Origin: Candidatus Nitrosopumilus sp. | GTDB taxonomy: Archaea > Thermoproteota > Nitrososphaeria > Nitrososphaerales > Nitrosopumilaceae | Length of the DNA: 52,247 nucleotides | Reading direction: 5' to 3' | Assembly: GCF_028278985.1 (NCBI RefSeq) | Contig: NZ_JANQTA010000030.1 | Coordinates: 1-52,247, forward strand | Part shown: positions 5,181 through 50,443 of the stretch, in pieces | Layout: each line of letters begins with the position of its first letter | Position numbering within the stretch: position 1 is the first letter of the stretch | Program-made: the position numbers and the translations under genes | The notes under the pieces: model-generated | Databases searched by the model: none | What the model saw: the letters and a program-made list of their open reading frames with translations, nothing else | Told to the model about the DNA's origin: nothing

Positions 5181-5264
5181 AAAATAATAATACATTTTGT
5201 GATCTAAAAAAACATCCTAAATAATTTACTGATTTTACGAAGAATTTCTCAGAAATATGTAATA

Positions 5265-5414
5265 TCATAAATTTAAGAGGGTACAACAGTGAAATCTAGG
5301 AATAGTTTTTTCATTACAAGAATTACAAATTAATTGAAATACAGTATTACAATCTCTGCATTTGACATATTCATTTAATCGAGTTCCACACTTTCTACAA
5401 CTTTCATCAGGCAT
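5265..5414 (-). CDS. Small Cys-rich double-knuckle protein (49 aa)
   Basis: A 49-residue protein with three CxxC pairs (CRKC, CRDC, CNSC) and a terminal CC, enough for one full zinc ribbon plus part of a second. The ATG at 5414 shares its A with the stop of the upstream gene (TAATG), so the two are almost certainly co-translated. The pairing with a DUF6659-like protein suggests a functional link, but the role is unknown. Confidence 0.75.
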   Translation of the reverse strand: MPDESCRKCGTRLNEYVKCRDCNTVFQLICNSCNEKTIPRFHCCTLLNL

Positions 5415-5824: not shown

Positions 5825-5909
5825 TTGTTGAAATTACAACTATGAACAACTAAAGAACCACGTAATTAGATCTTGTAAAACCATGTAATCTACGTAAAAA
5901 CAGTATTTC

Positions 5910-6590
5910 TCAGGATTCGGAAATTCTTTGTTCTTGGAATTTCTTTCTAAACAAGAATGCAACTATCGTAGTACCTACAAAAGGAGCAGTCCAATATAAC
6001 CAAAGATTTTCAAATGTTTCAGATAATAACGCAGGTGCCAATGCTCTTGCAGGATTCATCGAAGCTCCAGATATAGTAGCTAAAAATAGAATATCCAATC
6101 CAACAATTCCTCCGATAGCTACACCACTAAATCCTTTCAATCCCTTTGTGTAAACAACGTAAAAAATTACCCCCATAAGCATCGCAGAAGCTAATACTTC
6201 TACTGGAAATATCAAAAATATTGAATGATCAAAATTTGGTGCATTTGCACCAAGATCTGCAAAGTCACCAATGAAAGTTAGTACAAATATTGATGCTAAA
6301 ATTGCGCCAATAATTTCAGCTGCAAAATAATATACGATTTGAATTTTTGAAATATGTCCTGTAATGTAATATCCAATTGTTACTGCAGGATTAAAGTGAG
6401 CCAATGAAATTTTTCCAAATGAGTAAACCCCAATCAGTAATGCAATAAAAGGTGCAACAGCTGCAAACGGAATTCCCAATTCACCATTGAACATTTTTAC
6501 ATCATATACAATAGAACCAGTTGCAAAAATAACAAGAATAAAAGTACCAATTAATTCAACCGTAAAAATTCGAAGATTAGAATACGTCAT
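5910..6590 (-). CDS. Aquaporin / MIP-family channel of the arsenic cluster
   Basis: A 226-residue channel with six predicted membrane helices and both NPA boxes: HFNPAVTIG (Asn67) and SMNPARALAP (Asn179), the second followed by the usual selectivity-filter Arg182. Members carry water or small neutral solutes, including As(OH)3. The arsenate reductase stop abuts its start (shared base 6590), so it should be co-expressed with arsenic genes and may release arsenite made by the reductase, as described for AqpS-type channels. No ArsB or Acr3 pump is present nearby, which supports but does not prove that role. Confidence 0.9.
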   Translation of the reverse strand: MTYSNLRIFTVELIGTFILVIFATGSIVYDVKMFNGELGIPFAAVAPFIALLIGVYSFGKISLAHFNPAVTIGYYITGHISKIQIVYYFAAEIIGAILASIFVLTFIGDFADLGANAPNFDHSIFLIFPVEVLASAMLMGVIFYVVYTKGLKGFSGVAIGGIVGLDILFLATISGASMNPARALAPALLSETFENLWLYWTAPFVGTTIVAFLFRKKFQEQRISES

Positions 6591-6985
6591 TATTTGTTCT
6601 CTAAGTTTTTTATTAAATTTGTAACTTGGTTTTTTATTTCATCACGAATTTCTCTAATTTGTACAAGATCTTTGCCTTTTGGATCTGATATATTCCAATC
6701 AATTACATCTTTTACAAATAATGCAGGACATGATTCTTTGTCCATACATCCCATATTGACAGTAATGGATTGAGAAATCATTTCATTGGTAAGTTCTTTA
6801 GGTTGTTGTTTTGTGATATCAATTCCAATTTCTTGCATTACTTTTACTACATTTGGATTAAGTTCTGATTTTGGTTGTGTTCCTGCGCTCAAAACCTCCA
6901 TTTCAGGTGCAAAATGACGCAAAAATCCTTCAGCCATTTGACTTCGTCCTGCATTTTCAACACATACAAAAAGAATTTTTTTCAT
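6590..6985 (-). CDS. arsC: Arsenate reductase, low-molecular-weight phosphatase type
   Basis: A cytoplasmic protein of about 131 residues with the P-loop CVENAGRSQ (C-x5-R-S, nucleophile Cys8) at the extreme N-terminus, and two further Cys in GCMDKESC (Cys80, Cys86). This spacing matches the thioredoxin-coupled ArsC, where three Cys relay the disulfide during reduction of As(V) to As(III). DWNISDPKG supplies the catalytic Asp. I chose the ATG at 6985; a TTG two codons upstream (6991) would add two residues. It sits between the methyltransferase (13-nt gap) and the aquaporin. Confidence 0.9.
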   Translation of the reverse strand: MKKILFVCVENAGRSQMAEGFLRHFAPEMEVLSAGTQPKSELNPNVVKVMQEIGIDITKQQPKELTNEMISQSITVNMGCMDKESCPALFVKDVIDWNISDPKGKDLVQIREIRDEIKNQVTNLIKNLENK

Positions 6986-6998
6986 TTTCAAAACCAGA

Positions 6999-7757
6999 TT
7001 ATTTTATTGCTTTTATGACCAGACTGGAAATTTTTCTTCCATTAATTTTTTCACCTTCCATATAGGATCGTTCGTCCAATACTTCGATTTTTTCAAATCC
7101 TGCTGCTTTGATGGATGAAAGATAATTTTCTTTAGTCATTGCACCATCAATGCAATCACACCATTGATCGGAATTAATTTCACCTGGTAACAATTCCATA
7201 TCAGTAATTAAATCAGAAATCACCATCCTTCCATTTTTTCTTAATATTCTAAAAACTTCTTTGAAAGCATTTGTTTTGTTTGTTGTAAGATTTATGACAC
7301 AATTACTAATCACAGCATCAACAGAGTCGTGGTGTAATGGAATATTTTCTTCAATGTCTCCTTTCTTGAATTCAACATTTGAATAACTTCCTTTTATTGC
7401 GTTTTCTCTTGCTTTCTTGAGCATTTCATCTGTCATATCAATCCCAATGGCTTTTCCTGATTCCATAACTTTTTTTGCTGCCAAAAAAATATCAATTCCA
7501 GCTCCAGAACCCAAATCAACAACAATTTCACCTTCCTTTAGATCAGCGTGGTTAATTGGAGCTCCACATCCAACTCCCAAAATTGCTTCTTGAGGAATTG
7601 AGTCAAGTTCCTTTTGATCATAACCTATCAACCTTGTTGCATCAATAGGAGAATCACCAGTGTTACATTCACCGGGCATACAACAACAATCAGTATTCCC
7701 TGAAACTGCTATCTCAGAGTATTTTTTCTTAATATCGTTTTTAATTGAATTTTCCAT
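6999..7757 (-). CDS. arsM: Arsenite S-adenosylmethionine methyltransferase ArsM
   Basis: The 252-residue protein has SAM motif I VDLGSGAGID (near residue 80) and the three conserved As(III)-binding Cys: Cys64 in GVGCGAP, Cys153 in SNCVINL and Cys202 in WCDCIDG. An extra Cys cluster (CCCMPGEC, residues 24-31) precedes the core. These features separate ArsM from other class I methyltransferases. It methylates arsenite to methyl- and dimethylarsenicals in the cytoplasm. It is the first gene of the arsM-arsC-aquaporin unit, and a palindrome lies 7 nt before the ATG. Confidence 0.92.
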   Translation of the reverse strand: MENSIKNDIKKKYSEIAVSGNTDCCCMPGECNTGDSPIDATRLIGYDQKELDSIPQEAILGVGCGAPINHADLKEGEIVVDLGSGAGIDIFLAAKKVMESGKAIGIDMTDEMLKKARENAIKGSYSNVEFKKGDIEENIPLHHDSVDAVISNCVINLTTNKTNAFKEVFRILRKNGRMVISDLITDMELLPGEINSDQWCDCIDGAMTKENYLSSIKAAGFEKIEVLDERSYMEGEKINGRKISSLVIKAIK

Positions 7758-29806: not shown

Positions 29807-29899
29807 CTATAAAGTAACCAACTCACAAAAATTTACTAATTCATCCAAAGTCGAAACATTTCCTTTAAATTGAGATTGAAATTGTTTTTTATCAAGCTC
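29807..29899 (-). pseudogene. Possible 3' gene remnant at the tRNA edge
   Basis: A 31-codon open stretch with protein-like composition (KKQFQSQFKGNVSTLDELVNF) ends in TAG at 29807. Upstream it meets a stop inside the tRNA gene and has no plausible start codon. It may be the tail of a gene cut off when the tRNA region was rearranged. The stretch is short enough to arise by chance. Confidence 0.3.
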
Positions 29900-29970
29900 C
29901 TATAGTGTAGTCCGGTTAAGCATACTGCCCTCTCAAGGCAGTGACTCGGGTTCAAATCCCGATGGGAGCA
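29896..29970 (+). tRNA. tRNA-Glu (anticodon CTC)
   Basis: The acceptor stem GCTCCTA pairs with TGGGAGC (one G-T pair); the D-arm holds GTGTAGTCCGGTTAAGCAT; the anticodon stem CTGCC/GGCAG closes the loop CTCTCAA with anticodon CTC; the T-arm is CGGG-TTCAAAT-CCCG. Discriminator A at 29970, no encoded CCA and no intron. The tyrosine recombinase gene starts 45 nt downstream on the same strand, a typical integration arrangement. Confidence 0.95.
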
Positions 29971-30014
29971 TTACACATCTGGTTTAATACTCTGCCAGTA
30001 TTATGATATGATTA

Positions 30015-31358
30015 ATGTCAAAACAGCAGATTTCCGGCTCAAAGCAGGACAAGATAAAACTCTACAATTATGATAGAATCATCACCAATACTTTTGCCCT
30101 GATGGAAAAAGATCTCAATGAAAATAATTTTAGAATTATCAAGAAGTTTGACAGGGTCCTGGTAAACGAGTCATTATCCGATGCCAGACGCTCTAAGATA
30201 CTTGGAACGCTACTAAGTTTGTCAAGAATGCTCAAAATGAATTGGGATGAAACCACCAAAGAAGACATTGAAGAACTAGTGTACAACTTTAACAAAAAAT
30301 TCAGCAAAGATGGTCAAGAGACAAACACAACTGCAGACCACAAAAAGATTCTCAAGAACTTTTACAGATGGTTAAAGTTTGATTCAAGAGACCAAAAGCA
30401 AGTTGGGGATCCTACAGAAACAAGTTGGATTAGAATCAAGAAACCAAAAGAAAATCTAACTGCAGACATGCTAATTACAGAAGCAGAAAAAAATTCTTTG
30501 CTCAAAGCATGCGGAGAGAATCTCAGGGACAGAGCATTTGTCCACACGTTTTCTGATTTAGCTTGCAGGCCTGGAGAAATATTGAGTCGTCAAATCAAAC
30601 ATGTAAGATTTGATGACAAGGGAGCAGTGATTGTAGTTGATGGAAAAACTGGACCTAGACCAGTCAGAGTAATTGAATGCGTTCCAGATTTGGCATCATA
30701 CTTTGACAAGCATCCAAAAAACGACGATCCTGATGCACCGTTATGGATTGCAATGGATGAGAAAAAGTTCGGAGAGGCTTGGTCTTATCATGCAATGAGG
30801 AAAAGACTGCAAAGAGTTTGCGATGTTGCCGAAGTACACAAGAGAGTATGGCCAAATTTGTTCAGACATACAGGTGCAACAAAAACAGGAATGTTCCTTA
30901 CTGAATCACTGCAAAAGAAGAGATACGGATGGTCTTCAGGCTCTAAAATGCCAGGTCGATATGAACACATGATGAATTCAGACGTAGAAGAGGCAATGCT
31001 CAAACACTATGGAATTTCAACTACCAAAAAAGAGAACTTGGTAAACAAACCAAAAATCTGCCATATTTGTGACCTTCCAAATTCCTACGATTCTAAAATC
31101 TGCTCAAAATGTGGCAAGCCGTTGGACCTCAAAACAGTACTAGAAAATGAAGAAAAAAATGAAGAAGAAAGACAAAGTCTCAAAAAAGAAGTTGACAATC
31201 TAAAGGAGAATATGGATACCATAATTCAGCAAAAAATGGAAGAATACAACAAATCATTCATCAAAGAAATAGAGAAAATCTATGACAAGGAAAACGATGC
31301 ATTGATCAAGCGACTGGATGACATGGATGAAAAGTTCTACAAGAAAAACAAGTCATAA
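30015..31358 (+). CDS. Tyrosine recombinase (integrase) with zinc ribbon and coiled coil
   Basis: A 447-residue site-specific recombinase. Residues 20-140 form the core-binding domain; the catalytic domain shows Arg185 (ACRPGEILS), Lys211 (DGKTGPRP), Arg284-His285 (PNLFRHTGAT), Trp306 and the likely nucleophile Tyr316 (GRYEHMMN). The first His of the usual H-x-x-R is Asn281. A zinc ribbon (C349-x2-C, C363-x2-C) and a long coiled coil follow, an architecture common in thaumarchaeal integrases. Next to tRNA-Glu it marks one end of an integrated element. The gene is intact, so integration has not split it as SSV-type integrases do. Confidence 0.92.
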   Translation: MSKQQISGSKQDKIKLYNYDRIITNTFALMEKDLNENNFRIIKKFDRVLVNESLSDARRSKILGTLLSLSRMLKMNWDETTKEDIEELVYNFNKKFSKDGQETNTTADHKKILKNFYRWLKFDSRDQKQVGDPTETSWIRIKKPKENLTADMLITEAEKNSLLKACGENLRDRAFVHTFSDLACRPGEILSRQIKHVRFDDKGAVIVVDGKTGPRPVRVIECVPDLASYFDKHPKNDDPDAPLWIAMDEKKFGEAWSYHAMRKRLQRVCDVAEVHKRVWPNLFRHTGATKTGMFLTESLQKKRYGWSSGSKMPGRYEHMMNSDVEEAMLKHYGISTTKKENLVNKPKICHICDLPNSYDSKICSKCGKPLDLKTVLENEEKNEEERQSLKKEVDNLKENMDTIIQQKMEEYNKSFIKEIEKIYDKENDALIKRLDDMDEKFYKKNKS

Positions 31359-31845: not shown

Positions 31846-32616
31846 TCAAGAGCTGAATTTCAAAAACAAATCATTTAGAACTGCAAGCTGCTCCATTGCA
31901 AGTGCCCTAAGTGATTTTATTTCATCTTTTAGCTCTGCAATGTGATCTTTTTGTTCAGAAATTGTCTGTCTCATACTGTTTGATTCGGATTCCAGCTCAT
32001 CATACATGATTCTTAATTGTCCCTTGTCCAATGCCAGCATTTCGGCACGTGTTTTTTCAGTCTCTAATTGTGACTTTAGATTTTCAACCTCGTAATTCAG
32101 TGTAGTTATTCTGTTGCTAAGTACAACGTTGATTCTGGAATCCTCATCATAACCGTTGTTATTTTGTGCCGGATTGTTTCCATTAGAATTTGGTGGGGTG
32201 TATCTGTCCTTGTTTTCTGGTTCATCTGGAAGCTCAAAGACAACTATGTTTCCTTCCATCCAAGGATGGAGAATACAGAAATAATCATAGCTTCCTACAC
32301 TGGTAAATCTGAAAGAATAATCATAGCTTCCCATTATCAGTCCTGAATCAAACACACCGTCCGGACCATCTGTCGGATTTCCACTTGTAACTGAATGTGC
32401 AGCAGCGTCCTTGTTAATCCACTTTACAGTGCTTCCTTGTTGAACAAGGACTCCTGATGGATCGTAACAGCTGTTGCTTGTCTCGCAACCTGGTGCGGCA
32501 GTTCCAGAAGGTATTGAGATTGTAACAGTTTCTGCAAATGCTTCTTGAAGTGTTATTGAAAACATGGTTCCAAAAAGTAATGAAAATGTAATGGCTACCA
32601 TAATTGTATTATGCAT
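31846..32616 (-). CDS. Secreted cupredoxin (plastocyanin-like) with C-terminal coiled coil
   Basis: From the ATG at 32616: signal peptide (TIMVAITFSLLFGTMFSITLQ, cleavage near EAFA), then one blue-copper domain with ligands His74 (AAHSV), Cys114, His117 and Met120 (YFCILHPWMEG), a linker rich in Asn/Pro, and an 80-residue coiled coil ending the protein. It would carry electrons outside the membrane, in line with copper-based respiration in ammonia oxidisers. The frame is open upstream to 32721 but that extension has no sense before a signal peptide. It is divergent from the ribbon-helix-helix gene. Confidence 0.9.
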   Translation of the reverse strand: MHNTIMVAITFSLLFGTMFSITLQEAFAETVTISIPSGTAAPGCETSNSCYDPSGVLVQQGSTVKWINKDAAAHSVTSGNPTDGPDGVFDSGLIMGSYDYSFRFTSVGSYDYFCILHPWMEGNIVVFELPDEPENKDRYTPPNSNGNNPAQNNNGYDEDSRINVVLSNRITTLNYEVENLKSQLETEKTRAEMLALDKGQLRIMYDELESESNSMRQTISEQKDHIAELKDEIKSLRALAMEQLAVLNDLFLKFSS

Positions 32617-32711
32617 ATGTTGAATTAGACAGTTCAATAGATTATAAAGTATTCTATTATATTCTACTAGAATACCTTGGTTATGTGTTACAAAGTATGC
32701 CGTTATCATAT

Positions 32712-32855
32712 ATGAAGACAAAGACTACTGTATCTATAGACATAGAAGTCTACAAGTGGATTGAATCTATGGTCAAGCGTGGAAGATTTGCGACAATAAG
32801 TCATGGTATTGAATATTGTGCAAGAATAGTCAAAGAACAAAAATTGATCAATTGA
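32712..32855 (+). CDS. Ribbon-helix-helix (CopG-like) DNA-binding protein (47 aa)
   Basis: The ATG at 32712 starts MKTKTTVSIDIEVYKWIES, a short N-terminal strand followed by two helices, and continues MVKRGRFATISHGIEYCARIVKE. This is the ribbon-helix-helix pattern of small repressors (basic strand TKTTVSI, turn GRFAT, helix 2 SHGIEYCARI). The longer open frame from 32604 overlaps the cupredoxin signal region on the other strand and is unlikely. It probably regulates itself, the cupredoxin or the integrated element. Confidence 0.8.
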   Translation: MKTKTTVSIDIEVYKWIESMVKRGRFATISHGIEYCARIVKEQKLIN

Positions 32856-38253: not shown

Positions 38254-40038
38254 TCAATGCTTAATTTGGATTCGCTTTTTTTCTTTTGTTTCAGTTTCTA
38301 TAACAATTATTTTTCCCGTTATCCATGGGTGTACCATGCAAAAATATTCGACAACACCTGCTTTGTCAAAAACATGTTCAAACTTTTCATTTGGCATAAA
38401 CAATGAACTATCAAAATCTCCATCAGGACCTCCGTCAGGAGTTCCACTTGTAATTGTATGTGCTGCATTGTCATCATTTATCCATTTTACAATGGTTCCT
38501 TTTTCAATGGTTATGATTTCTGGCTCCAAGTATTTTCCATCATGAGGAACAGATGATTTGGGCAAAATTTTCACTGTTTTCTGCGGCTGTTCAAAATTTA
38601 CTTTTGCAGTGGCAATGATATCTAAATTAGATTTTTTGATATTTGCTGGAACACTCCAGTCAACATATTTTGCAAAAATGCTATCTCCTGTAGAAATCTG
38701 AAGGCGATTGTTTCCAGAGATTTTTTTATCTAAAAGAACGACTCCTTCAAAAATACCTGTAGCCTCACTTGTTTCAGACAATTCCACCTCTATTCCTTCT
38801 AAATCTGTATCAGACCAAACTCTAATTTTTACAACATCTATTTTTTCAGGATCCAAGTTCATATCCGGATCAATTACTCTTATTTTTGCAGAAGATGGGG
38901 ATGAATAGTATTCATTATCCCATTCAATTTCACCTATATTGTATCGAATCATTGCAGAACCGGTGTATTTTTCATATTCAGTAATCATTTCTACATTTAA
39001 GATGTCATCTTTATCACATGCTAATTTACCATTTATTGGACCATTTCCTTTCGTAATCCCAATTTTTTTAGGAATTTTTTTGGCATTTTTTGGAAAATTG
39101 TTTTTTAAACTAGTAAGCGTGATGTCACCTGTAAAAATTCCTGAGTCTTTTCCTGTTTCTATCAATTTATAATTCAAAAGCTTTCCTTTTTTTGTAGATA
39201 TGTTTACTTTGCAATCAGGCTTATTTCCAATTACATCAGCTTTATGAGAATCAAAATTAAAATCTGGAGCAACTATTGTAAGACACACTTTATCTGTAGG
39301 AACATACACTCTTTGATCTAATTCAATTGCTGCACCAAAATTAGATGAGAAAATTGAAAGTTTTTCATTTCCACTACTAGATTTGAATTCAATTAAAATT
39401 TCCTCTCCAATAGAAACCGGCAGTTGGCCATTAAATGGACCTGTTCCTTTTGCCTTGTTTTTTACTCTTTTACCTTTTTTCTGTGTGTATAATGGAGTAA
39501 GTTCTAAAACTCCTTGAAATATTCCTGTAGAATCACCTGTTTCACGTAATTTGTAACCCTTGATTATTCCATGACTAGAAGAAAGTGTTAAGAAATGTTC
39601 TGGTTTGTTTCCAATAATCTCAGCTTTCTGATTGTCCTTATCTAAATCAGGAGCAATCACTGTCACAATTACATCCGAACCATTGATGTAAACTGATTTG
39701 TCTGTTTGAATAACCGGTCTACGTTTTGCAATGATTGTAGAGTCAGATGCTTCAAAATTACCATATTTTGCAATTACAGTATAACTATGCCCTAATTTCC
39801 AAACATTTCCTTTCATCCTAACATCGGTTTGGAATAAGTAATCAGGAGGACGCTCTAAATTATGTGTCTTATACGGATTAATGGTTCTAGAAATAATTGA
39901 TTTTTTATTATTATCAATTATATCCATATGGATTGACTCATTTGGAATCAAATCAAATATTCTAAAACGAATATGCATGATGCTATCTAATGGATATACT
40001 GTTCGGTCAAATGACACTGTAATTGGGTTTCCTTTCAA
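38254..40038 (-). CDS. Multi-domain beta-sandwich protein with C-terminal cupredoxin domain
   Basis: A 594-residue protein with three to four repeats of an Ig-like module (VYINGSDVIVTVIAPDLDKDNQKAEI, VYVPTDKVCLTIVAPDFNFDSHKADV, SSAKIRVIDPDMNLDPEKIDV, each followed by ETG.STGIF.G) and a blue-copper domain at the end (AAHTITSG, YFCMVHPWITG). The copper ligands His, Cys, His are present but the axial Met is Ile. Such modules normally occur in secreted thaumarchaeal proteins, yet no signal peptide is seen after the TTG start (TTGA overlap with the cyclase). The true start or export route is uncertain. Confidence 0.8.
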   Translation of the reverse strand: MKGNPITVSFDRTVYPLDSIMHIRFRIFDLIPNESIHMDIIDNNKKSIISRTINPYKTHNLERPPDYLFQTDVRMKGNVWKLGHSYTVIAKYGNFEASDSTIIAKRRPVIQTDKSVYINGSDVIVTVIAPDLDKDNQKAEIIGNKPEHFLTLSSSHGIIKGYKLRETGDSTGIFQGVLELTPLYTQKKGKRVKNKAKGTGPFNGQLPVSIGEEILIEFKSSSGNEKLSIFSSNFGAAIELDQRVYVPTDKVCLTIVAPDFNFDSHKADVIGNKPDCKVNISTKKGKLLNYKLIETGKDSGIFTGDITLTSLKNNFPKNAKKIPKKIGITKGNGPINGKLACDKDDILNVEMITEYEKYTGSAMIRYNIGEIEWDNEYYSSPSSAKIRVIDPDMNLDPEKIDVVKIRVWSDTDLEGIEVELSETSEATGIFEGVVLLDKKISGNNRLQISTGDSIFAKYVDWSVPANIKKSNLDIIATAKVNFEQPQKTVKILPKSSVPHDGKYLEPEIITIEKGTIVKWINDDNAAHTITSGTPDGGPDGDFDSSLFMPNEKFEHVFDKAGVVEYFCMVHPWITGKIIVIETETKEKKRIQIKH

Positions 40039-40757
40039 TTCTTTTTCCTCTTCCTTTTTGAAGATAGTGATAATTTAGTTTGTTTGTTTTGTTTCAATAA
40101 CTCTAATAATTTTTTTGGATTTATTTCATCTTTCTTTAATCCTTCAAAAATAACACGGCCAGATTCTTCTTGAATTGGTTTCTCTGTGAATTTTGAGTTG
40201 TCATTATTTCCAAAACACTCCCCATAAGCAGAATAGACTGGTATGATTTCTTCATGTTTAATTTCGATATTTCCAATATAGTGAATGTTCTGTTTGTATT
40301 CATCAGATATTTCTATGAGTTCTTGTGCTGTATTAGCACTAAGTAAAATATGAGATGCGTCTCCGGCACTCATAATTCTTTGAGCATGAATAAGACCTCG
40401 CCCCCAATAATTTCCCTGTCCCTTAACTCCTCTGGTTTTTGAAATTAACCCTGAGTTAATTCCTATTCGGACCAAAATTTTTTCTTTTTTGGGTTTATTT
40501 TTATTAAAACGATTTAATTTTTTATGGAGATCAATTGACAACTCTAACGGTAAACGTGGATTTTCAGTAAAACAAATTGCAACCCCATCTCCTGTATGTG
40601 ATGTAATTGTAGAATTTTTTAGAATTTTACTATTTGTGATATACCTAAACATAGTTTCTAATTTTTTACTTTGTGTCTCAGTAGATCCTAAACTTCTATC
40701 GGACAATGAAACCATGTCTACAAAAAATACATGTACAAAAAGCTCTGTATTTTTCAA
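40035..40757 (-). CDS. Class III nucleotidyl cyclase domain protein
   Basis: A 240-residue soluble protein whose first 170 residues match a class III cyclase domain: metal ligands Asp14 (FFVDMVSLSD) and Asp57 (HTGDGVAICF), the strand VRIGINSG, and NYWGRGLIHAQRIMSAG with the transition-state Arg127; the usual Asn before it is His124. The purine-selecting Lys is not evident, so the product nucleotide cannot be named. No receiver, HAMP or membrane part is present. The C-terminus is a Lys/Arg-rich tail. TTG start overlapping the Mrr-like gene; expression in a nuclease operon suggests Pycsar-like signalling. Confidence 0.8.
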   Translation of the reverse strand: MKNTELFVHVFFVDMVSLSDRSLGSTETQSKKLETMFRYITNSKILKNSTITSHTGDGVAICFTENPRLPLELSIDLHKKLNRFNKNKPKKEKILVRIGINSGLISKTRGVKGQGNYWGRGLIHAQRIMSAGDASHILLSANTAQELIEISDEYKQNIHYIGNIEIKHEEIIPVYSAYGECFGNNDNSKFTEKPIQEESGRVIFEGLKKDEINPKKLLELLKQNKQTKLSLSSKRKRKKN

Positions 40758-41230
40758 ATATTATTATCTCCATTAAAATTCTCTATAAGTTTGATGACAT
40801 CTTTTCTATTCCATAGAACAATTCCTATTTTTGTAGCCAATTCTCGTGCCCCATTTGTGTAAAATGAATTTGTAATTACTATACCAACGTCTGCGTCATA
40901 ATATGCTACTGCACCATGTGCTTCTTGTACTGCACCATTTGACACTTTTCTGTCAATAGAATATCGTTTTGCTTGAAAAACATATTTGGTACCATCTTTT
41001 GTTGCAAGCACATCCCCACCTTGATCACCGCTTTTTCCAGTTACTACTACATCTGAAAATCCATCGCTTTTTAGCAACTCAGCTACAAACTCTTGAAATG
41101 CATTCCCATCTAATCTGTCAGCTTGAAACATGTTCAATTTCTGAATATTTGTTCTTGTTGGATCATTTCTATTTTTAATTTGAGGTTTTGTGATATTTGT
41201 CTTTTCAATTTCTGCATGAATTAACTCCAT
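40754..41230 (-). CDS. Mrr-like restriction endonuclease
   Basis: A 158-residue PD-(D/E)xK nuclease of the Mrr_cat type: an N-terminal helix GNAFQEFVAELLKSDGF, the catalytic core SGDQGGDVLATKDGTKYVFQAKRY with Asp73 and Gln86-x-Lys88, and the later DVGIVITNSFYTNGARELA. Mrr-like enzymes cut modified or foreign DNA. There is no N-terminal winged helix as in classic Mrr, so targeting may come from its operon partners. ATG shares a base with the upstream stop (TAATG). Confidence 0.9.
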   Translation of the reverse strand: MELIHAEIEKTNITKPQIKNRNDPTRTNIQKLNMFQADRLDGNAFQEFVAELLKSDGFSDVVVTGKSGDQGGDVLATKDGTKYVFQAKRYSIDRKVSNGAVQEAHGAVAYYDADVGIVITNSFYTNGARELATKIGIVLWNRKDVIKLIENFNGDNNI

Positions 41231-41442
41231 TAATTTTCTCTTTGGTAATTTTTTTTAATCATCTGATCTTGTACAATTACAATGGCAAAACTTTCTCTAT
41301 ATTCTTCATCATCATATGAAAAATTTTGCATGAAATGTTGAATTACATTAGATAAAGTTCGTGTAGATTCAAAATCAGTCCAAAAATTATTTTCGAGATC
41401 TAGTGCTATTGGAGAATAAGCATCCCCACCAAGATATGCCAA
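41230..41442 (-). CDS. Hypothetical small protein of the SNF2-Mrr operon (70 aa)
   Basis: A 70-residue acidic protein from a TTG directly after the TAG of the Cys-array gene, with a GGAGAT ribosome-binding-like motif. It ends in a stop overlapping the Mrr ATG. The sequence (SPIALDLENNFWTDFESTRTLSNVIQHF) matches nothing I know. Its fixed place in the operon makes it a likely accessory subunit. Confidence 0.6.
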   Translation of the reverse strand: MAYLGGDAYSPIALDLENNFWTDFESTRTLSNVIQHFMQNFSYDDEEYRESFAIVIVQDQMIKKNYQREN

Positions 41443-43200
41443 CTATCTCCATCCTCCTTTTTTATGAACTAGAACCTGTTTTTTGATTTTATCAAACACA
41501 ATTATTTTACTTCCAAATAATTTTTTGACTTTAAACACAGAGAATTTACTGTTTGATGCGCACTCCCATTTCTTTATTTTTTGGAGTTCTTTATAGGATT
41601 GAATAATCTCTTGAACCTCTTGGTGTTCTTTTTCTACTGGTTGCAATTTTCTACATGTGTTGCAAAGTTTTCCACCAACACAACTGCTGTTGTAAGATTG
41701 TTCACATAGATTACATTTTCTGGAATCTTTCAAACAATGATTTTCCCCACAAATTCCACAGATAGTAATATCAGTTGAGCAAAAACGAGATTTACATTCG
41801 ACACATTCAATAGAGTCTGATTGGCATAGACGTTTTTTACATATTTTACAGGCATAAAGAGACTTTTCACAGAATCTTTGGAAACAAATCTGACAGCTAT
41901 CAGAGCAAAAATAACATGTTTTCTCAGAACAATGGGTACACGTAATAAGATGATTCTTGCATGTCAATTCGGTACAAAAATTACATCTTGAGGTACAATC
42001 AGAACAAAGTCCCTCTTGGCACACATAGCATGGATTAAGTTCATCAGCACATGATGCACAAACATCCTTCCCACATTTTACGCAATGAGTTGTACAAAAG
42101 TCACAACTTAGATGAGAATTAACGCAGAGATGAGTCATTTCCATTTGGTTATTACAGACTTCACAAGTCATAATGAAATTTTTTGAAGGATCAACATATT
42201 TTGTATAAATTTGCTTATCTGAAACATTATTTTTAAATTCTAAATTACAATCTGTTACGCTATACGAATACACTTTAGCTGCTACAAGTGCAAAATCCAC
42301 TATTGGGCGGTATCTCTTCTCTATTTGTTCTATCTGAACTGCTTTATCTTTAGTTAATCTTTGAACTAGTTTTCCTAGTTTCTCTTGTTCTTTTACAATT
42401 CTTTCCTCTTGTTTACTTTTTTGTTCTGCGTATTTTACCTGAGTTTCATACGACCGTGCATTCAAAATTTTTCTATCATATTCATGTAATTTATTCCTCT
42501 GTAAACTAACATCTTGATTGTATTCTTTCATTCGTCTTTCATGTGCTTGGAGAACCGAATTGATGTCTCTTGTTTTGTTGTTTTCAGTTAAATCTGCATA
42601 TTTTAGTGCCAGATACTGAATTTCATCATCTAGAAATTCTGTTGCTTTGCTATATGCATAGTCAATTCTAGAATCGTTTTGCTCATATTTTATTTCTCCT
42701 AACGATTCATCAACCATTATTTCCGACGGAAATTCAAGGATCTCAAGTGTCTCTAAATCAACATCGACCCACCTTAGCATAGCAACTCGTTTGATACTCT
42801 TCACGTTAATATTGAAAAAATACCTAACTGCCATTTTGATTTCTTCTTTAGAATCAATACAAGCAATTTCACAATTATGAGTAGGTATTGTGCCTACTTC
42901 TTCTTGTGGATTTTGTACCCGTTTTTGGAGATGTACACCGACCACGGGAGCCTGTTTTCGAATCTGGCTGAGAATAATATCTAAAAAATTACTTCCAGGC
43001 ACAACAAGTTCACATGAATGGGTTTCGGCAATTTCATGATCAAATGTAACTCTCTTGGAGATCGTTCCAAAAATGGATTCAAATTCCTTAGGTATTGTAA
43101 TAGAATACAATCCATGAGATTCTTCTACTTCAGCTCCAATCTTCTGCAGATAATCTAGAGAAAGTTCTTTTGAAAGTTCTAAAATTTCTTTATCGTTCAT
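41443..43200 (-). CDS. Protein with coiled coil and tandem Cys-knuckle array
   Basis: 585 residues in three parts. Residues 1-190 form an alpha/beta domain without known family. Residues about 200-300 form a coiled coil (ALKYADLTENN through KAVQIEQIEKR). Residues 346-516 hold about 37 Cys, arranged in roughly nine or ten CxxC-x4-C modules (CVKCGKDVC, CYVCQEGLC, CTHCSEKTC, CKICKKRLC, CGICGENHC), each likely one zinc knuckle. The short C-terminal tail is basic. The array resembles B-box/treble-clef stacks and may bind DNA or the SNF2 protein encoded 2 bp upstream. The family is unknown to me. Confidence 0.75.
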   Translation of the reverse strand: MNDKEILELSKELSLDYLQKIGAEVEESHGLYSITIPKEFESIFGTISKRVTFDHEIAETHSCELVVPGSNFLDIILSQIRKQAPVVGVHLQKRVQNPQEEVGTIPTHNCEIACIDSKEEIKMAVRYFFNINVKSIKRVAMLRWVDVDLETLEILEFPSEIMVDESLGEIKYEQNDSRIDYAYSKATEFLDDEIQYLALKYADLTENNKTRDINSVLQAHERRMKEYNQDVSLQRNKLHEYDRKILNARSYETQVKYAEQKSKQEERIVKEQEKLGKLVQRLTKDKAVQIEQIEKRYRPIVDFALVAAKVYSYSVTDCNLEFKNNVSDKQIYTKYVDPSKNFIMTCEVCNNQMEMTHLCVNSHLSCDFCTTHCVKCGKDVCASCADELNPCYVCQEGLCSDCTSRCNFCTELTCKNHLITCTHCSEKTCYFCSDSCQICFQRFCEKSLYACKICKKRLCQSDSIECVECKSRFCSTDITICGICGENHCLKDSRKCNLCEQSYNSSCVGGKLCNTCRKLQPVEKEHQEVQEIIQSYKELQKIKKWECASNSKFSVFKVKKLFGSKIIVFDKIKKQVLVHKKGGWR

Positions 43201-43202
43201 TT

Positions 43203-44966
43203 TTATCTACTCGTTGACAAATCAAAATTAGCAAATACTTGATCATCAAAGTCCATAATCGTATCATGCAAGTTTTTTTTGGTGTGAGATAGCCTATCAC
43301 CTAATGCTGAGAACTTGTTTTGTGTATCTTTTCTAGTTGTTGCTGACATGTATGATTCAAAAATTTCTGAAGGAAGTTTTTCAAATCCTTCATCTTCGAA
43401 TAATAAATCAAGATCTCCTATAGTCATTTTAAATAAATTAATTTTGTCAAATAGTAATTTTAGAACATATTCCTCAATACTTCCAATGATTGCTAAATTA
43501 TGAATATGGACATCTTCCTCCTGCCCGATTCTATGAACTCTTCCTACTCTTTGCTCTACTCGCATTGGATTCCATGGCAAATCATAATTGATCACTTTAC
43601 TACAAAATTGAAAATTTTGACCTTCGCCACCAGCTTCTGTTGCAATCATAATTTGAATATCTCGTTTAAATTTACTAACCGCGGTATCTCTTTCCCGTGC
43701 AGACATTGAACCGTTAAATTTTACTGCTTCAATTTCTTCATCATCAAAATAATCAAAAATGTAATCTTGTGTGTCTCTAAATTCTGTAAATATCAGATGT
43801 TTTTCTTCGGGGTTTTCTTTGATTATGTCCCGTAATCTTTGCATTTTAGAATCAACTTTAATTTTGTCAGCCAACTCCAAAATACTCTCAAGTTCATCTA
43901 CATACTGAGGGAATTGCTGTTTTTTGTTCCTAATTGCGCCTCTCAAAGCAGATGTACTGCTTGAAATTTGCCTCTGAAGTGTCATTAGAGGCAGGACAAA
44001 GTTTCTTCCTCCTTTTTGTGCAAGCCATAATTTCCTAACAAATTCTGTTGCATGTTGATACAGTTGACTTTCATATTCAGATGGCTCTAAAAGATGAGTT
44101 CTCGGAATTCTATCTGTAAATTCAATGTATTCTTTTACTTCTTCTCGCGTTGTTCTGATAACTGCTTGTCTTAGAATTTCTTGTAATTCAAATCTTCTTT
44201 GAGGAATAATTTTCTGTGCCTTTTTATCACTTGTAAAACTAGATGCAAAATCTCTCCAAGACCCGAGATATCCTGGTTTGATTATTTCAACTAGGTTGTA
44301 TAGCTCTTCTAAACTATTTTGAATTGGAGTAGCGGATAATAAGAAGATAAATTTTTTCTGTAATTCTCTTACAAACTGATTTGCCTGGGTAGTGGATTTT
44401 TTTAACCTATGAGCCTCATCTACAATTACTACATCCCATTCAATATCTTTTAACAAATTTGCATTTCGTGGTTGAATGGCGGATGATATTGAAGTGATAA
44501 GCATAGTATGTTTATCATATCCTTCAAATCTAGAATCATCTTTGTTAACTATGAAATCAAGTTCAAATTTTGACTTTAGTTCTTCTTGCCATTGACTTCG
44601 TAATGAGGGAGGAGTAAGAATTAATGCATTGCGTATTATTCCAGTTACAAAATATTCTTTTAGTAAAATCCCTGCTTCAACTGTTTTTCCCAAACCCACT
44701 TCGTCGGCTAGGATTACTCTTCCATTAAGATTGTTTTTTACAAGTTTTGCTGCCATGATTTGATGATCAAAAATTGAGATAGTTGAATTTAATGAATTTT
44801 GTATTGTTAGACCGCGAGATTGTTGGGCATTGATTATTTCATATGCCTTTAATAGATTTGACAAATCCTTAGGTCTATCAAAAATTAATTGCCTAAGTTT
44901 GTTTTTTACGCCATAGGTATCAAAATACCTTAACTCAACTCGATTATCACTATTCCAATTTGACAA
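43203..44966 (-). CDS. SNF2-family DNA-dependent ATPase/helicase
   Basis: A 587-residue complete SF2 SNF2/HepA-like motor: motif I DEVGLGKTVEAG (Lys94), Ia LTPPSLRSQWQEEL, II VDEAHRLKK (DEAH at 182-185), III SATPIQNSLEELY, IV HLIFTEFRDTQDYI, V ATEAGGEGQNFQFC, and VI QRVGRVHRIGQ. There is no separate N-terminal domain of HepA. SNF2 motors without a chromatin context in archaea are often part of DNA-defence or modification systems (for example DISARM, Dpd). Starts at a TTG 6 bp after the nuclease-like gene. Confidence 0.92.
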   Translation of the reverse strand: MSNWNSDNRVELRYFDTYGVKNKLRQLIFDRPKDLSNLLKAYEIINAQQSRGLTIQNSLNSTISIFDHQIMAAKLVKNNLNGRVILADEVGLGKTVEAGILLKEYFVTGIIRNALILTPPSLRSQWQEELKSKFELDFIVNKDDSRFEGYDKHTMLITSISSAIQPRNANLLKDIEWDVVIVDEAHRLKKSTTQANQFVRELQKKFIFLLSATPIQNSLEELYNLVEIIKPGYLGSWRDFASSFTSDKKAQKIIPQRRFELQEILRQAVIRTTREEVKEYIEFTDRIPRTHLLEPSEYESQLYQHATEFVRKLWLAQKGGRNFVLPLMTLQRQISSSTSALRGAIRNKKQQFPQYVDELESILELADKIKVDSKMQRLRDIIKENPEEKHLIFTEFRDTQDYIFDYFDDEEIEAVKFNGSMSARERDTAVSKFKRDIQIMIATEAGGEGQNFQFCSKVINYDLPWNPMRVEQRVGRVHRIGQEEDVHIHNLAIIGSIEEYVLKLLFDKINLFKMTIGDLDLLFEDEGFEKLPSEIFESYMSATTRKDTQNKFSALGDRLSHTKKNLHDTIMDFDDQVFANFDLSTSR

Positions 44967-44972
44967 ATTCTA

Positions 44973-46268
44973 TCATGTTTCTGCAATTATTTCCTTGGCA
45001 ACGGTTTCCTTTTGTGTTATACTTTCCACACTTGATTCAATGTCCATGTATGCACGTATGAGTTCATTGCGAAGTTTACTTCGATCTTTCCATAATGTTT
45101 GATGTAAACGAATTTCTTTATCTTGTAATTTACGCATTTTCTCATTCGTTTCATATACGATCTTAATCAGATTTGAGAATTCTGAACTTATCATATAATC
45201 AAAGAGTTTTGCCTCTTTTGCATCCCTATCTTTTGCACCTTTTTTTATCCGTGAAATTTCAATTATGTTGTCTCTGCATCTAGTTACAACTTCAATCAGT
45301 ATCCTTGGATTTACAATAATCATTCCATCTTTGAGTCCATAGATTCCATTTGGAGCATATGATTTTGGAATGTCAGTTGAAACTATGATGACGTATTTTA
45401 TATTACTATTTTCAGCATATTTCTTAGCTTTTTCAATATCTGTAGATTTTACTTTTGTATTTTCTTTATTGTCAAAAGCAATTTGAATATCTAATTTTTT
45501 CTCATTCGATACAATTGTTTGATAAATATCTGCAGTGGAAATGCCTCTTTTCTGGCGATTGAATTTATCATTTGGAAATGCAGCATGTAATTGTTCTAAC
45601 AAATTCAATTCACCTACTTCACCTTTTAGCTCTGACTGAGTTTGAGAAAGTTTGTTTTGTAATTCTTCAGCTTGGTCATTTGCACGTTTTATCTGAATAT
45701 CTTTTTGACGTAGTTCTTTTTCTATTTCCAATAGTTTAATATCATAATCACTTTTTGCTTTTTCATATGCAATCTGATGTGCTTTTTGTTTGATTTTTTC
45801 TAATTTCTTAATCTCTTCATTCTTTTCTTTCATTAAGGCTTTCATTGATTTGTTAAATTGAAGTTCTGCATCTTTATGCTGTTTTTTAATTTGTTTGATC
45901 ATTTCTTCATATTGTTTTTTATTACTACGTCCTGTTTCATCAGATTGTTTTTTTGTTTGTTTTAACATATCTGCATAATGTTGTTTCAGTTTGATTTCTG
46001 ATTGCTTCTTATCTTTTTCTAAATCTGTACGAAGCGTGTTGATTTGAACCTTGTAAAATGTTTGTTGTTCTTTTTTATCATTTTCATGTTTTTTTGTAAT
46101 TTCATCTAATTTCTTGTCAAATTTTTCTTTGTTTTTTTGCTCTTCATTTTTGTATCTTTCTTCAATTTGCTTTTCTAATTTGTTTAATGCCAAATTGTAT
46201 TCTTCAGTTGTAATAGGCCTATTACAAAGTGGACATTGTTGTTCAGAATCAAACTGAGATTTGCTCAT
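44973..46268 (-). CDS. Coiled-coil protein with DUF2130-like nuclease domain
   Basis: A 431-residue protein opening with a CPLC knuckle (Cys12, Cys15), then about 190 residues of heptad-rich, Lys/Glu coiled coil, then a domain GEVGELNLLEQLHAAFPNDKFNRQKRG..ADIYQTIV..LDIQIAFDNKEN resembling the DUF2130 (PF09903) PD-(D/E)xK-like fold, with Asp-based acidic sites and a Lys. A further helix bundle closes it. It resembles DUF2130 proteins linked to defence loci. First gene of the seven-gene operon, with an ATG start. Confidence 0.75.
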   Translation of the reverse strand: MSKSQFDSEQQCPLCNRPITTEEYNLALNKLEKQIEERYKNEEQKNKEKFDKKLDEITKKHENDKKEQQTFYKVQINTLRTDLEKDKKQSEIKLKQHYADMLKQTKKQSDETGRSNKKQYEEMIKQIKKQHKDAELQFNKSMKALMKEKNEEIKKLEKIKQKAHQIAYEKAKSDYDIKLLEIEKELRQKDIQIKRANDQAEELQNKLSQTQSELKGEVGELNLLEQLHAAFPNDKFNRQKRGISTADIYQTIVSNEKKLDIQIAFDNKENTKVKSTDIEKAKKYAENSNIKYVIIVSTDIPKSYAPNGIYGLKDGMIIVNPRILIEVVTRCRDNIIEISRIKKGAKDRDAKEAKLFDYMISSEFSNLIKIVYETNEKMRKLQDKEIRLHQTLWKDRSKLRNELIRAYMDIESSVESITQKETVAKEIIAET

Positions 46269-46652: not shown

Positions 46653-47051
46653 TTATGGTGAATGTACTTTAGGAGGATAATTAATTTGGATTTTTTCTCC
46701 TTTGGGCGGAGTATCTTTATCATTACAGAGTTTACCCTTATCCCCACCATAGCCATAGTATAATGTGTGTTCGATATTACTTCGCATAGTTTCATCGGGC
46801 ACCAAAGCATAGTAGATATGTCTGTTCTCGTCAGTTGCTTCTTGCATGCATTTTTTGTTATCTCTTTTGTGAGCATTGATTCTTTCGGCAATATCGCCTT
46901 TTCCTACATATCGTGCTATTTGATTAGTTTGGCCAAGAGTATTTGCAATTATGTATACACCTTTTTCTTCGGAATACGTTACAGGTTTTTCCTCACTGTT
47001 TTTTTCTTTATGAATCATAGGTCCTTTCCATTCAACATGCATACGATACAC
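46653..47051 (-). CDS. GIY-YIG nuclease-like protein
   Basis: About 132 residues with the GIY-YIG arrangement: GVYIIANTL (GIY position), ARYVGKGDIAERINAHKR (YIG position, with the Arg of the active site), and SNIEHTLYYGYGG carrying the catalytic Glu. The family cuts DNA in repair, restriction and homing. A Lys/Pro-rich C-terminus follows (PPKGEKIQINYPPKV). It lies next to the SNF2 operon but is separately transcribed. Confidence 0.65.
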   Translation of the reverse strand: MYRMHVEWKGPMIHKEKNSEEKPVTYSEEKGVYIIANTLGQTNQIARYVGKGDIAERINAHKRDNKKCMQEATDENRHIYYALVPDETMRSNIEHTLYYGYGGDKGKLCNDKDTPPKGEKIQINYPPKVHSP

Positions 47052-47983: not shown

Positions 47984-50443
47984 TCAATTTAATCCAGAGT
48001 CATTTGGGTTTTCAGGATCTGAAGATCCTGTATAAGAGCCTGTTACATCCTCAGACACTGAAGGAAATGCGTCAAGACTCATATGATTAAGAAAGTTGTT
48101 TAAGATATTTCCATCAATAGGCACATTTTGAATTGGATAATTGTTTAAAGTGCCAAAACCACAATTCCCAACTGCAGCAAAACCATTTAATGAAAGCGTT
48201 GTTGCAAATTGACTTGAAGAAATGTAATGTGGTTCTCCATTACATATTGAGTTATGTTGGTATATTGTAAATTGAAATGCAGGATATTGGCGTCCATTAT
48301 CTACAGTAACTAGAGGAATAGAAAAAGATTGGTTTGGATCATATGGCCCATCTATAGATGAGATGCCTGCAAGATATTCTTCAACTATATCTTCAATTGC
48401 AGCATATGCTTCATCATACGTGTCAAAATTGTATGTGCTAGTACCAAGTTTCACTTGGATTTTTCCACTAATAGTAGGTACAACAGAGGTGGAGGTAGTT
48501 GAACTGTCTGGATAAGTTATTGTTGCTTTTGTTCCACTGTTTGTCAGCAAGACAGTGGTTCCATCTGGATAAATAATAGTGACAGTGCCATTAGGATTCT
48601 CAACTCTAGAGATATTATTTTCATCTTCTAAATTATTTGAATTAGTTTCGACATCCTCGTTAGGATGCAATACTGTTCGTGTCCCATCTGGATATACAAT
48701 TATTGTGAATCCATCATCATATTGAAGAATTTCCATACCATCAGGATATGTAGTAATTTTTCCCACTCCAGGTGCAATATCTTCACTATATCCTTCAATA
48801 GTATTTCCAGCAGAGTCCATTACAGTTTCAACACCATTTGGATCAGTGGTAATTGAATTCCCATTTTGGTATGTGGTGATGGTTGTTCCATCTGGATATC
48901 TTGTCGTATGCACTCCATCTTTTGTGGTGGTAGCACTACTTCCGTCATCATAGTAAGTAGTTGTTGAGCCATCAGCATTATCAGTAGTTCCTGTTACAAT
49001 ATTTTCTCCACAGGTATCACATGCAGTATCATTATTTTCATCTTGTAATTCATTATCACATGTTTCACATGGATTTTCAGTAGGGTCTGTCTCGGTACCT
49101 CCAACTAACTCACCGCACTCTAGACATATCTCATCATCTTCTTGACCATATTCAACCCCACATGAATCACAATCAAGATCAGGTTCAGGAGGGATTGGAG
49201 ATGGTGAAACTTCAGAAACATGAATTTCGTTTCCGTCATGGGGGCCAAAGCACGTGATACAGATATTTTCATCTAATTCGCCAGAGCAAGAACCACAATA
49301 TTGACAGACGTCAAGTACTGCATCTTCTTCAAATCCAGGTAATCCACTCAGATACTCCCATTCTTCTTCTGTGATATCTCCATCATCAATAAATTCACAG
49401 ATTTGTTCAGAAAAAGTCACATCAACCAAATCAATACATTCACCAGAATCCATTGGGTTTAGAGTCAAACCATCAGGACAGAGAGTTTTCTTATCGAAGA
49501 AACATTTTCCAGGAACTAAATCAGTCCATGAATAGAAATCATTGCATTGAGGAGTTACAACAGCAGTTTGCCCATAAACATAAACAATTACAATAGTACC
49601 ATTGACATGAATATATTTAGAATATCCATAATCATCGCTTCTTTCAAAAAGCGTGGCACCAGAGATTAAAGATTCAACATATTGTTGATCTGCAAGCATG
49701 GGAATAATAGATTCAGAAACAGAAGAGTTGCCGTCTGGAAAATCTCCTAAAGTGGCACCAACACCAGTTCCAGGGTGTAAATCATCAATCACACTGTCAA
49801 CTAATTCCCCATTTTGAAATGTTGGTAAACCGTTCAGATATTCTAATTCCTCTTGTGTAAATACATCACCAGGAATAAAGATATCAGGCCAGTCTTCATC
49901 TTCATTTGTATCAAGAAGTTCACCAAGTTCTTTTACTTCATCTGTAGAAAGTTTTTGTTTTTCTTTACGTTCAGAGACTTCGTTTTGTATTTTTTCAGAA
50001 TTAATTATTCCTTGACTCATTAAATGTCCAATAGAGTTAACAATTTCACCATCTGAAACAATTCCATCACTCCAAAAACCAAAAACATCTTTTTGATAAC
50101 TTGGAATAACAAAATCTCCACCTTTTGGTACACCTGCTTGATGTTCAAGTCCAGATGACGATTTGATGAATTTATCAAGAGGAATTACATCTTGAATCAT
50201 CAAACTCTCCAATGCATTAATCATATCTGCATCAGAGATTAGACCATTTTTCCACCATTTGGCATTGCTTTTGAACCAATCAGGCATTATTGCATCAGAT
50301 TGTGCACTCTGAACTCCAGTTCCTCCTCCCCACTGTTGAGGAAATGGAATGTCTTCTTCTTGGCCATAAGACATGGAATAACTTTGTAAAAGTAAGATCA
50401 TTCTCAGAAATGTAACGATAAAAAATCTAAGCAATACTTTCAA
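47984..50443 (-). CDS. Large secreted protein with W-W modules, Cys ribbons and PDGT repeats
   Basis: An 819-residue protein: signal peptide (FFIVTFLRMILLLQSYSMSYG), two N-terminal modules of the W-W type (MPDWFKSNAKWWKNGLISDADMIN, then a diverged IPSYQKDVFGFWSDGIVSD), two acidic EF-hand-like or dockerin-like segments (LDTNEDEDWPD; FIDDGDITEEEWEYLSGLPGFEE), three zinc-ribbon-like Cys groups (CQYCGSC..CITC, CDSCG..CLEC, CETC..CDTC), a long TTTYPDGT repeat tract, and a C-terminal beta domain. Presence of Cys ribbons outside the cell is unusual. It probably belongs to the S-layer-associated envelope. Confidence 0.85.
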   Translation of the reverse strand: MKVLLRFFIVTFLRMILLLQSYSMSYGQEEDIPFPQQWGGGTGVQSAQSDAIMPDWFKSNAKWWKNGLISDADMINALESLMIQDVIPLDKFIKSSSGLEHQAGVPKGGDFVIPSYQKDVFGFWSDGIVSDGEIVNSIGHLMSQGIINSEKIQNEVSERKEKQKLSTDEVKELGELLDTNEDEDWPDIFIPGDVFTQEELEYLNGLPTFQNGELVDSVIDDLHPGTGVGATLGDFPDGNSSVSESIIPMLADQQYVESLISGATLFERSDDYGYSKYIHVNGTIVIVYVYGQTAVVTPQCNDFYSWTDLVPGKCFFDKKTLCPDGLTLNPMDSGECIDLVDVTFSEQICEFIDDGDITEEEWEYLSGLPGFEEDAVLDVCQYCGSCSGELDENICITCFGPHDGNEIHVSEVSPSPIPPEPDLDCDSCGVEYGQEDDEICLECGELVGGTETDPTENPCETCDNELQDENNDTACDTCGENIVTGTTDNADGSTTTYYDDGSSATTTKDGVHTTRYPDGTTITTYQNGNSITTDPNGVETVMDSAGNTIEGYSEDIAPGVGKITTYPDGMEILQYDDGFTIIVYPDGTRTVLHPNEDVETNSNNLEDENNISRVENPNGTVTIIYPDGTTVLLTNSGTKATITYPDSSTTSTSVVPTISGKIQVKLGTSTYNFDTYDEAYAAIEDIVEEYLAGISSIDGPYDPNQSFSIPLVTVDNGRQYPAFQFTIYQHNSICNGEPHYISSSQFATTLSLNGFAAVGNCGFGTLNNYPIQNVPIDGNILNNFLNHMSLDAFPSVSEDVTGSYTGSSDPENPNDSGLN

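What the first reader, a model, noticed from the sequence alone, without database searches (positions are those of the whole stretch)
38254..46268. Seven-gene operon joining SNF2 motor, two nucleases, a Cys-knuckle array and a class III cyclase: candidate new defence system
Seen directly: the genes run on one strand with gaps of 6, 2 and 0 bp and overlaps of 1, 4 and 4 bp, so they form one unit. Order of products: DUF2130-like coiled-coil nuclease, SNF2 ATPase, 585-aa Cys-knuckle protein, 70-aa protein, Mrr-like endonuclease, class III cyclase, cupredoxin-domain protein. From family knowledge: SNF2 motors with PD-(D/E)xK nucleases occur in DISARM, Dpd and related systems, and class III cyclases trigger effectors in Pycsar. 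I know of no described system with all of these. A defence role, with the cyclase as alarm and an effector yet to be identified, is inference.
Basis: partly seen in the sequence, partly recalled or inferred. Interest (0 to 1): 0.85.

Follow-up and report, generated by a model that had tools for sequence, protein, structure and literature searches.

The report
Split RapA-type DNA motor with nuclease

Summary
The operon is real: seven same-strand ORFs with the stated gaps and overlaps. It is not a seven-gene system. The '70-aa gene' is the N-terminal part of the Mrr nuclease, one unbroken gene in a relative. The DUF2130, cyclase and cupredoxin genes occur apart from it in relatives and are absent from the one other locus that carries the whole core. 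The core is SNF2 + 'Cys-knuckle protein' + Mrr.

The SNF2/Cys pair belongs to a widespread two-gene unit, HepA(YqhH)-YqhG, found in Bacilli, haloarchaeal plasmids, cyanobacteria, Pseudomonadota and others. By profile and predicted fold, the partner is the detached C-terminal half of RapA/HepA motors; E. coli RapA was its only significant PDB match. The Cys array is a lengthened zinc-finger tail: 0-6 CxxC motifs in most members, 15 here, 23 in a KSB3 bacterium.

In Nitrosopumilaceae the unit is rare (4 of 250 genomes), lies beside a tRNA-Glu/integrase in the window and near dndBCDE in one relative, and carries Mrr in both complete loci. Best reading: an accessory helicase-nuclease restriction module in split-RapA format. 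Defence is inferred; a cyclase alarm is unsupported. PADLOC, DUF499 and DUF1156 tests place it in no named system.

The parts
43203..44966 (-). Core: SNF2 motor of the HepA(YqhH)/RapA type, 587 aa, ATPase core only (Walker A DEVGLGKT, DEAH, QRVGRVHRIGQ intact), without the RapA C-terminal half
   Evidence: Pfam SNF2-rel_dom 1e-37 and Helicase_C; NCBIfam DrmD/DpdE/RapA matches all far below cut-off; tree with 54 SNF2s
41443..43200 (-). Core: YqhG-type partner, 585 aa = detached RapA/HepA C-terminal half plus a zinc-knuckle array
   Evidence: Iterative HMM, hhalign 95% to C-terminal halves of one-piece SNF2s, Foldseek to E. coli RapA E 1.2e-5
42166..43200 (-). Partner residues 1-345: N-terminal alpha+beta domain, beta-sheet domain and two long helices
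   Evidence: AlphaFold2 model pLDDT 82.8, Foldseek
41560..42165 (-). Partner residues 346-547: array of C-x2-C units, period about 15 aa, lengthened from the 0-6 CxxC tail of most relatives
   Evidence: model of this part is poor
40754..41442 (-). Core: Mrr-type PD-(D/E)xK nuclease with a ~90-aa N-terminal region; in the window two ORFs (41230-41442 and 40754-41230), one ORF in G106
   Evidence: Mrr_cat 8e-29; fused homologue in G106; frame analysis
41249..41256 (-). A8 run at which the Mrr reading frame is broken relative to G106
44973..46268 (-). Passenger: DUF2130 coiled-coil protein, 6 bp upstream of SNF2
   Evidence: PF09903 9e-22; relatives in G135 and G145 stand apart from SNF2
40035..40757 (-). 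Passenger: class III cyclase domain, 240 aa
   Evidence: PF00211 4e-7; relatives without SNF2
38254..40038 (-). Passenger: S-layer-like beta-sandwich repeats with C-terminal cupredoxin-like domain
   Evidence: a relative also lies 0.3 kb upstream of SNF2 in G066
29896..29970 (+). Context: tRNA-Glu (CTC) at the junction between core chromosome and accessory segment
30015..31358 (+). Context: integrase-like protein directly after the tRNA
   Evidence: Phage_integrase 1.7e-4, below Pfam cut-off

Best explanation
The functional unit is three genes: an SNF2 motor, its YqhG-type partner and an Mrr nuclease. Shown: the motor and partner together make up a RapA/HepA-type SNF2 protein in two chains (ATPase core in one; RapA C-terminal half plus zinc-knuckle array in the other), and an Mrr-type nuclease with conserved QxK motif follows in both complete Nitrosopumilaceae loci. 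Inferred: the two chains assemble into a double-stranded DNA translocase; the zinc array serves as a binding surface for the target (DNA, RNA polymerase or another protein on invading DNA); the motor, once halted or activated on foreign DNA, brings in the Mrr nuclease, which cuts. It would thus work like the helicase-nuclease effectors of BREX-related systems or ZorD, spread over three chains, as an accessory defence module on an integrated element. DUF2130, cyclase and S-layer/cupredoxin genes are strain-specific additions to the transcription unit. Step by step: split RapA unit about 0.95; co-function with Mrr about 0.75; defence about 0.55.
For: SNF2+partner gene order in haloarchaeal, cyanobacterial and alphaproteobacterial plasmids and in about 60 of 80 further SNF2 loci. 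A profile from the four Nitrosopumilaceae partners, iterated over 2,191 ORFs, collects essentially all downstream ORFs (including Pfam YqhG, PF11079) and otherwise only the C-termini of one-piece SNF2s, weakly; hhalign to those C-termini 95%, E 2.6e-8. The predicted fold of the partner has E. coli RapA as its only PDB match below 0.001 (E 1.2e-5, probability 1.00; next 0.41). All two-gene SNF2s form one clade apart from one-piece ones (94/98). Mrr follows the pair in G000 and G106. Rare and accessory: 4 of 250 family genomes. tRNA-Glu + integrase upstream, core genes beyond. dndBCDE/dndA near the G066 copy; HmaB/HmaC-like and DUF1156/DUF499 genes near haloarchaeal copies. [quoted passage not shown]
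Against: Mrr was not found beside the pair in any of the bacterial or haloarchaeal loci examined, and in Bacilli the pair is an ordinary chromosomal unit; B. subtilis HepA(YqhH) is described as RNA-polymerase-associated (PMC7385302) and yqhH loss makes B. thuringiensis UV-sensitive (PMC10054049). Only two complete loci carry Mrr, and the G066 copy has lost the zinc tail. The window's Mrr reading frame is broken. No phage or plasmid-exclusion test exists. The dnd genes of G066 are 4-9 kb away and on the other strand.
Confidence: 0.6

Rival explanations
1. Transcription or repair factor: the split RapA-type unit acts on stalled RNA polymerase or damaged DNA as in Bacillus, and Mrr is a neighbour or an auxiliary repair nuclease; no defence role.
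For: Fold match to RapA; Bacillus HepA/YqhH called RNA-polymerase-associated (PMC7385302); B. thuringiensis yqhH knock-out UV-sensitive (PMC10054049); ordinary chromosomal neighbours in many bacteria.
Against: In Nitrosopumilaceae the unit is rare and accessory, sits by an integrase, near dnd genes in one relative, and is joined to Mrr in a unit-like order. Haloarchaeal copies are on plasmids among DUF1156 genes.
Confidence: 0.25
2. The first reader's seven-gene signalling defence system, in which the class III cyclase raises an alarm.
For: Tight spacing of all seven ORFs; a relative of the S-layer/cupredoxin protein also lies next to the SNF2 in G066.
Against: Cyclase and DUF2130 are absent from the only other locus that carries the whole core (G106) and occur without SNF2 elsewhere; the S-layer-like family has about 14 matches per genome; no TIR, membrane or other cyclic-nucleotide effector was recognised in the operon.
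Confidence: 0.07
3. A maintenance or conflict gene set of the integrated element itself (for example acting against competing elements or in its own replication or transcription), not host antiviral defence.
For: Integrase by tRNA-Glu; haloarchaeal, cyanobacterial and alphaproteobacterial copies on plasmids, one of them beside ParA/ParB-type genes.
Against: No second tRNA 3' end (att site) found in the window or the draft genome, so the element's limits are unknown; no subfamily member among the best viral contigs.
Confidence: 0.08

Closest known systems
HepA(YqhH)-YqhG gene pair of Bacilli (YqhG = Pfam PF11079, 'unknown function')
   Same: ~560-590 aa SNF2 directly followed by a homologous partner; same subfamily by profile and tree
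   Different: Bacillus partners lack any CxxC tail and no Mrr follows; the window partner has 15 CxxC and is not itself recognised by PF11079
E. coli RapA (RNA-polymerase-associated SNF2)
   Same: SNF2 core plus the RapA C-terminal fold
   Different: Two chains instead of one, no recognisable N-terminal Tudor-like domain, zinc array and Mrr added
BREX-related (BR, DUF499-centred) Type-1 helicase-nuclease, including HmaA
   Same: SNF2 + C-terminal alpha+beta domains + active PD-(D/E)XK nuclease as described in PMC12839542
   Different: Spread over three genes; no DUF499 in the genome and no DUF1156 in the window's own genome
Zorya ZorD (SNF2 helicase with Mrr-like nuclease)
   Same: Same two activities; the Mrr protein matches the ZorD model at 4e-20
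   Different: Separate chains, no ZorA/ZorB in the operon, ZorD score 101 against cut-off 1500
DISARM DrmD / Dpd DpdE
   Same: Among the best-scoring SNF2 models (267 and 207 bits)
   Different: Far below cut-offs (950/610 and 500); no DrmA/B/C or Dpd partners in the operon

Membership tests
HepA(YqhH)-YqhG pair | SNF2 core of HepA type, ~550-600 aa, without C-terminal half | tested here: met
HepA(YqhH)-YqhG pair | Directly downstream partner homologous to YqhG | tested here: met
   Iterative profile reaches PF11079 members; the window protein alone does not reach PF11079
RapA | C-terminal half of RapA fold | tested here: met
   Foldseek 8so8 E 1.2e-5; a sequence-only profile did not reach RapA in the PDB
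RapA | One chain with N-terminal domain | tested here: not met
   Two genes; the helicase core starts near residue 60
RapA | Binds RNA polymerase | not testable with these tools
   needs biochemistry
BREX-related (BR/Hma) system | DUF499 ATPase | tested here: not met
   none in G000, G106, G066, G080
BREX-related (BR/Hma) system | DUF1156-type methyltransferase | tested here: not met
   none in G000; one weak match elsewhere in G106 at 3.7e-5, far below cut-off
Zorya | ZorA/ZorB motor plus ZorC/ZorD | tested here: not met
   no ZorA/B among operon proteins; ZorD model far below cut-off; rest of genome not searched
DISARM | DrmD above cut-off with DrmA/B/C and methylase | tested here: not met
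   267 vs 950 bits, no partners in the operon
Pycsar | Cyclase adjacent to a cyclic-nucleotide-sensing effector | tested here: not met
   no effector domain recognised in neighbouring genes
Pycsar | Catalytically competent pyrimidine cyclase | tested here: inconclusive
   GDG metal-binding motif kept, usual Asn before the Arg not seen in the alignment; product specificity not testable
Hna (single-chain helicase-nuclease) | One protein with helicase and nuclease, stimulated by a phage SSB | not tested
   known from PMC13381803 only

The most novel reading that the evidence does not exclude
A transcription-coupled restriction module: a split RapA-like motor rides or probes RNA polymerase on invading DNA, the zinc-knuckle array reads the complex, and Mrr cuts the template. 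RNA-polymerase recycling machinery would have been turned into archaeal immunity.
Probability: 0.12. Interest if true: 0.8.

Novelty: new variant of a known kind. Interest (0 to 1): 0.47.

Why it matters
It gives a structural identity to YqhG (Pfam 'unknown function', in many Bacilli) as the detached C-terminal half of a RapA/HepA motor, which makes the Bacillus HepA-YqhG pair directly testable as a two-chain RapA. It also shows this pair joined to a nuclease in ammonia-oxidising archaea, whose antiviral systems I found little written about, in the same combination of parts as recently described BREX-related helicase-nucleases.

Tried and rejected
Seven-gene unit: rejected by comparison with G106, G080, G066 and by per-gene searches. 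The 70-aa ORF as an independent gene: rejected. Cys array as a new domain of its own: rejected as an extension of a tail found in relatives. Membership in DISARM, Dpd, Zorya, BREX-related/Hma: cut-offs or partner genes not met. First pattern scans with the single Cys protein in genome and viral contigs found nothing; the SNF2 alignment did. The SNF2 search of viral contigs gave only distant SNF2s (at most 33% identity). att-site search with the tRNA 3' end: only the tRNA itself. PDB sequence profiles of the partner found no RapA, so the RapA link rests on the fold match and on profile-profile matches to other one-piece SNF2s. The structure model of the Cys array was poor (pLDDT 54) and is not used. 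No paper linking YqhG with HepA/RapA was found in the held library.
Full report
What is there. The seven ORFs stand at the coordinates given, on the minus strand, with gaps 6, 2 and 0 and overlaps 1, 4 and 4. The window is contig C31 of a 1.69-Mb draft genome. Left of position 29,900 are core genes (haem synthesis, phosphate uptake); at 29,896 there is a tRNA-Glu, at 30,015 an integrase-like gene, and then the accessory stretch with the operon.

Which genes belong together. The Cys protein has relatives in only 4 of 250 family genomes, its own included. In G106 (another genus) the order is SNF2, Cys-array protein, and one gene that begins like the window's 70-aa ORF and ends in Mrr; there is no DUF2130, cyclase or cupredoxin gene. 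In G080 a contig end cuts the Cys protein after an SNF2. In G066 an SNF2 and a shortened partner lie some kilobases from dndBCDE and dndA. The joined reading of the window's 70-aa and Mrr frames matches G106 and is broken at an A8 run. DUF2130 relatives (G135, G145) and cyclase relatives (16 of 100 genomes, mostly ~400-aa two-domain proteins) lie elsewhere without SNF2, and the S-layer-like family has about 14 matches per genome. One observation runs the other way: a relative of the S-layer/cupredoxin protein lies just upstream of the SNF2 in G066 (41% identity); given how common the family is I treat it as weak.

What the Cys protein is. The best relatives of the SNF2 outside this group are ~580-aa SNF2s of haloarchaeal plasmids and of bacteria, each followed by a 'hypothetical protein' of mostly 260-400 aa. 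In Bacilli that protein is YqhG (PF11079) and the SNF2 is HepA/YqhH. A profile of the four Nitrosopumilaceae partners, iterated over 2,191 ORFs from all loci, recruits these downstream proteins and nearly nothing else, apart from weak matches to the C-termini of one-piece SNF2 proteins. Profile-profile comparison with those C-termini gives 95% probability. A model of residues 1-345 (pLDDT 83) has only two PDB matches below E 0.001, both E. coli RapA. Its long paired helices inside a beta-sheet domain fit the published description of RapA's C-terminal domain, for which those authors found no other homologues (PMC12839542). So SNF2 and partner are a RapA/HepA-type motor in two chains. All two-chain SNF2s form one clade in a 54-row tree (94/98), with the four Nitrosopumilaceae sequences as one subclade (100/100), so the split is old. 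Direct sequence profiles did not reach RapA in the PDB, so the fold is the main evidence for RapA itself.

The cysteine array. CxxC counts in partner tails are 0 in Bacilli, 2 in haloarchaea and actinobacteria, 3-5 in many Pseudomonadota and Acidobacteriota, 6 in a Chloroflexi bacterium, 15 in the window and G106, and 23 in a KSB3 bacterium. The array is therefore a lengthened version of an existing zinc-finger tail. Its sequence matches the KSB3 and Chloroflexi arrays (E 1e-10 and 2e-6 in the small ORF pool; Cys-rich composition inflates such scores). The G066 copy lacks it.

How it may work. The nuclease keeps the Mrr D...QxK motif (visible in the sequence). Published BREX-related Type-1 helicases carry SNF2, an inactive REase, the RapA-type C-terminal domain and an active PD-(D/E)XK nuclease in one chain (PMC12839542). 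The window has the same parts as separate genes and in the same order, but no DUF499 in the genome and no DUF1156 in the window's own genome, so it is not a BREX-related system. I infer a self-standing helicase-nuclease module that translocates on DNA, recognises its target through the partner's array, and cuts through Mrr. A defence role is supported by rarity, integrase, dnd and HmaB/HmaC-like neighbours in relatives, and the nuclease; it is not shown. The main rival is a RapA-like transcription or repair role, since the Bacillus protein is described as RNA-polymerase-associated (PMC7385302) and its loss causes UV sensitivity in B. thuringiensis (PMC10054049).

Verdict. A real operon, but a three-gene core with passengers. 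The core is a new variant of a known kind: a split RapA-type SNF2 motor, an expanded zinc-finger partner and an Mrr nuclease. The most useful general result is the identification of the YqhG family as the detached RapA C-terminal half.

Noticed in passing
window 29896-31358: tRNA-Glu(CTC) followed 45 bp on by an integrase-like gene; everything to the left is core chromosome, to the right accessory. No second copy of the tRNA 3' end was found in the window or draft genome.
   Followed up: partly
L007 (G066:C9:50000-69999) 980-7189: Complete dndBCDE plus dndA set in a Nitrosopumilaceae-type genome, with an SNF2 and shortened YqhG-type partner 4-9 kb away.
   Followed up: partly
L042-L062: A family of archaeal class III cyclases in which the cyclase domain is fused to a ~200-aa beta-rich domain, or in f8 genomes to an N-terminal RecA/KaiC-like ATPase domain (by eye); some lie beside further cyclase-domain genes.
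   Followed up: no
L075 7598-9409: KSB3 bacterium with a 603-aa YqhG-type partner carrying 23 CxxC motifs, overlapping an SNF2 gene by 11 bp.
   Followed up: partly
L116, L121, L123: Actinobacterial YqhG-type partners of 650-730 aa with a long extra C-terminal domain of unknown kind.
   Followed up: no
L006 3-1037: A metallo-beta-lactamase-fold (RNase J-like by eye) gene lies directly upstream of the SNF2 in G080.
   Followed up: no
window 47984-50443: 819-aa predicted surface protein with zinc-ribbon-like CxxC pairs and YPDGT repeats (Tcp10_C, MiiA-type motif).
   Followed up: no
window 46653-47051: Weak GIY-YIG nuclease-like ORF upstream of the operon on the same strand (E 0.003, below cut-off).
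   Followed up: no
window 31846-32721: Second cupredoxin-domain protein in the same accessory stretch; part of its cupredoxin DNA (32347-32444) is 73% identical to 38410-38507 of the operon's last gene.
   Followed up: no
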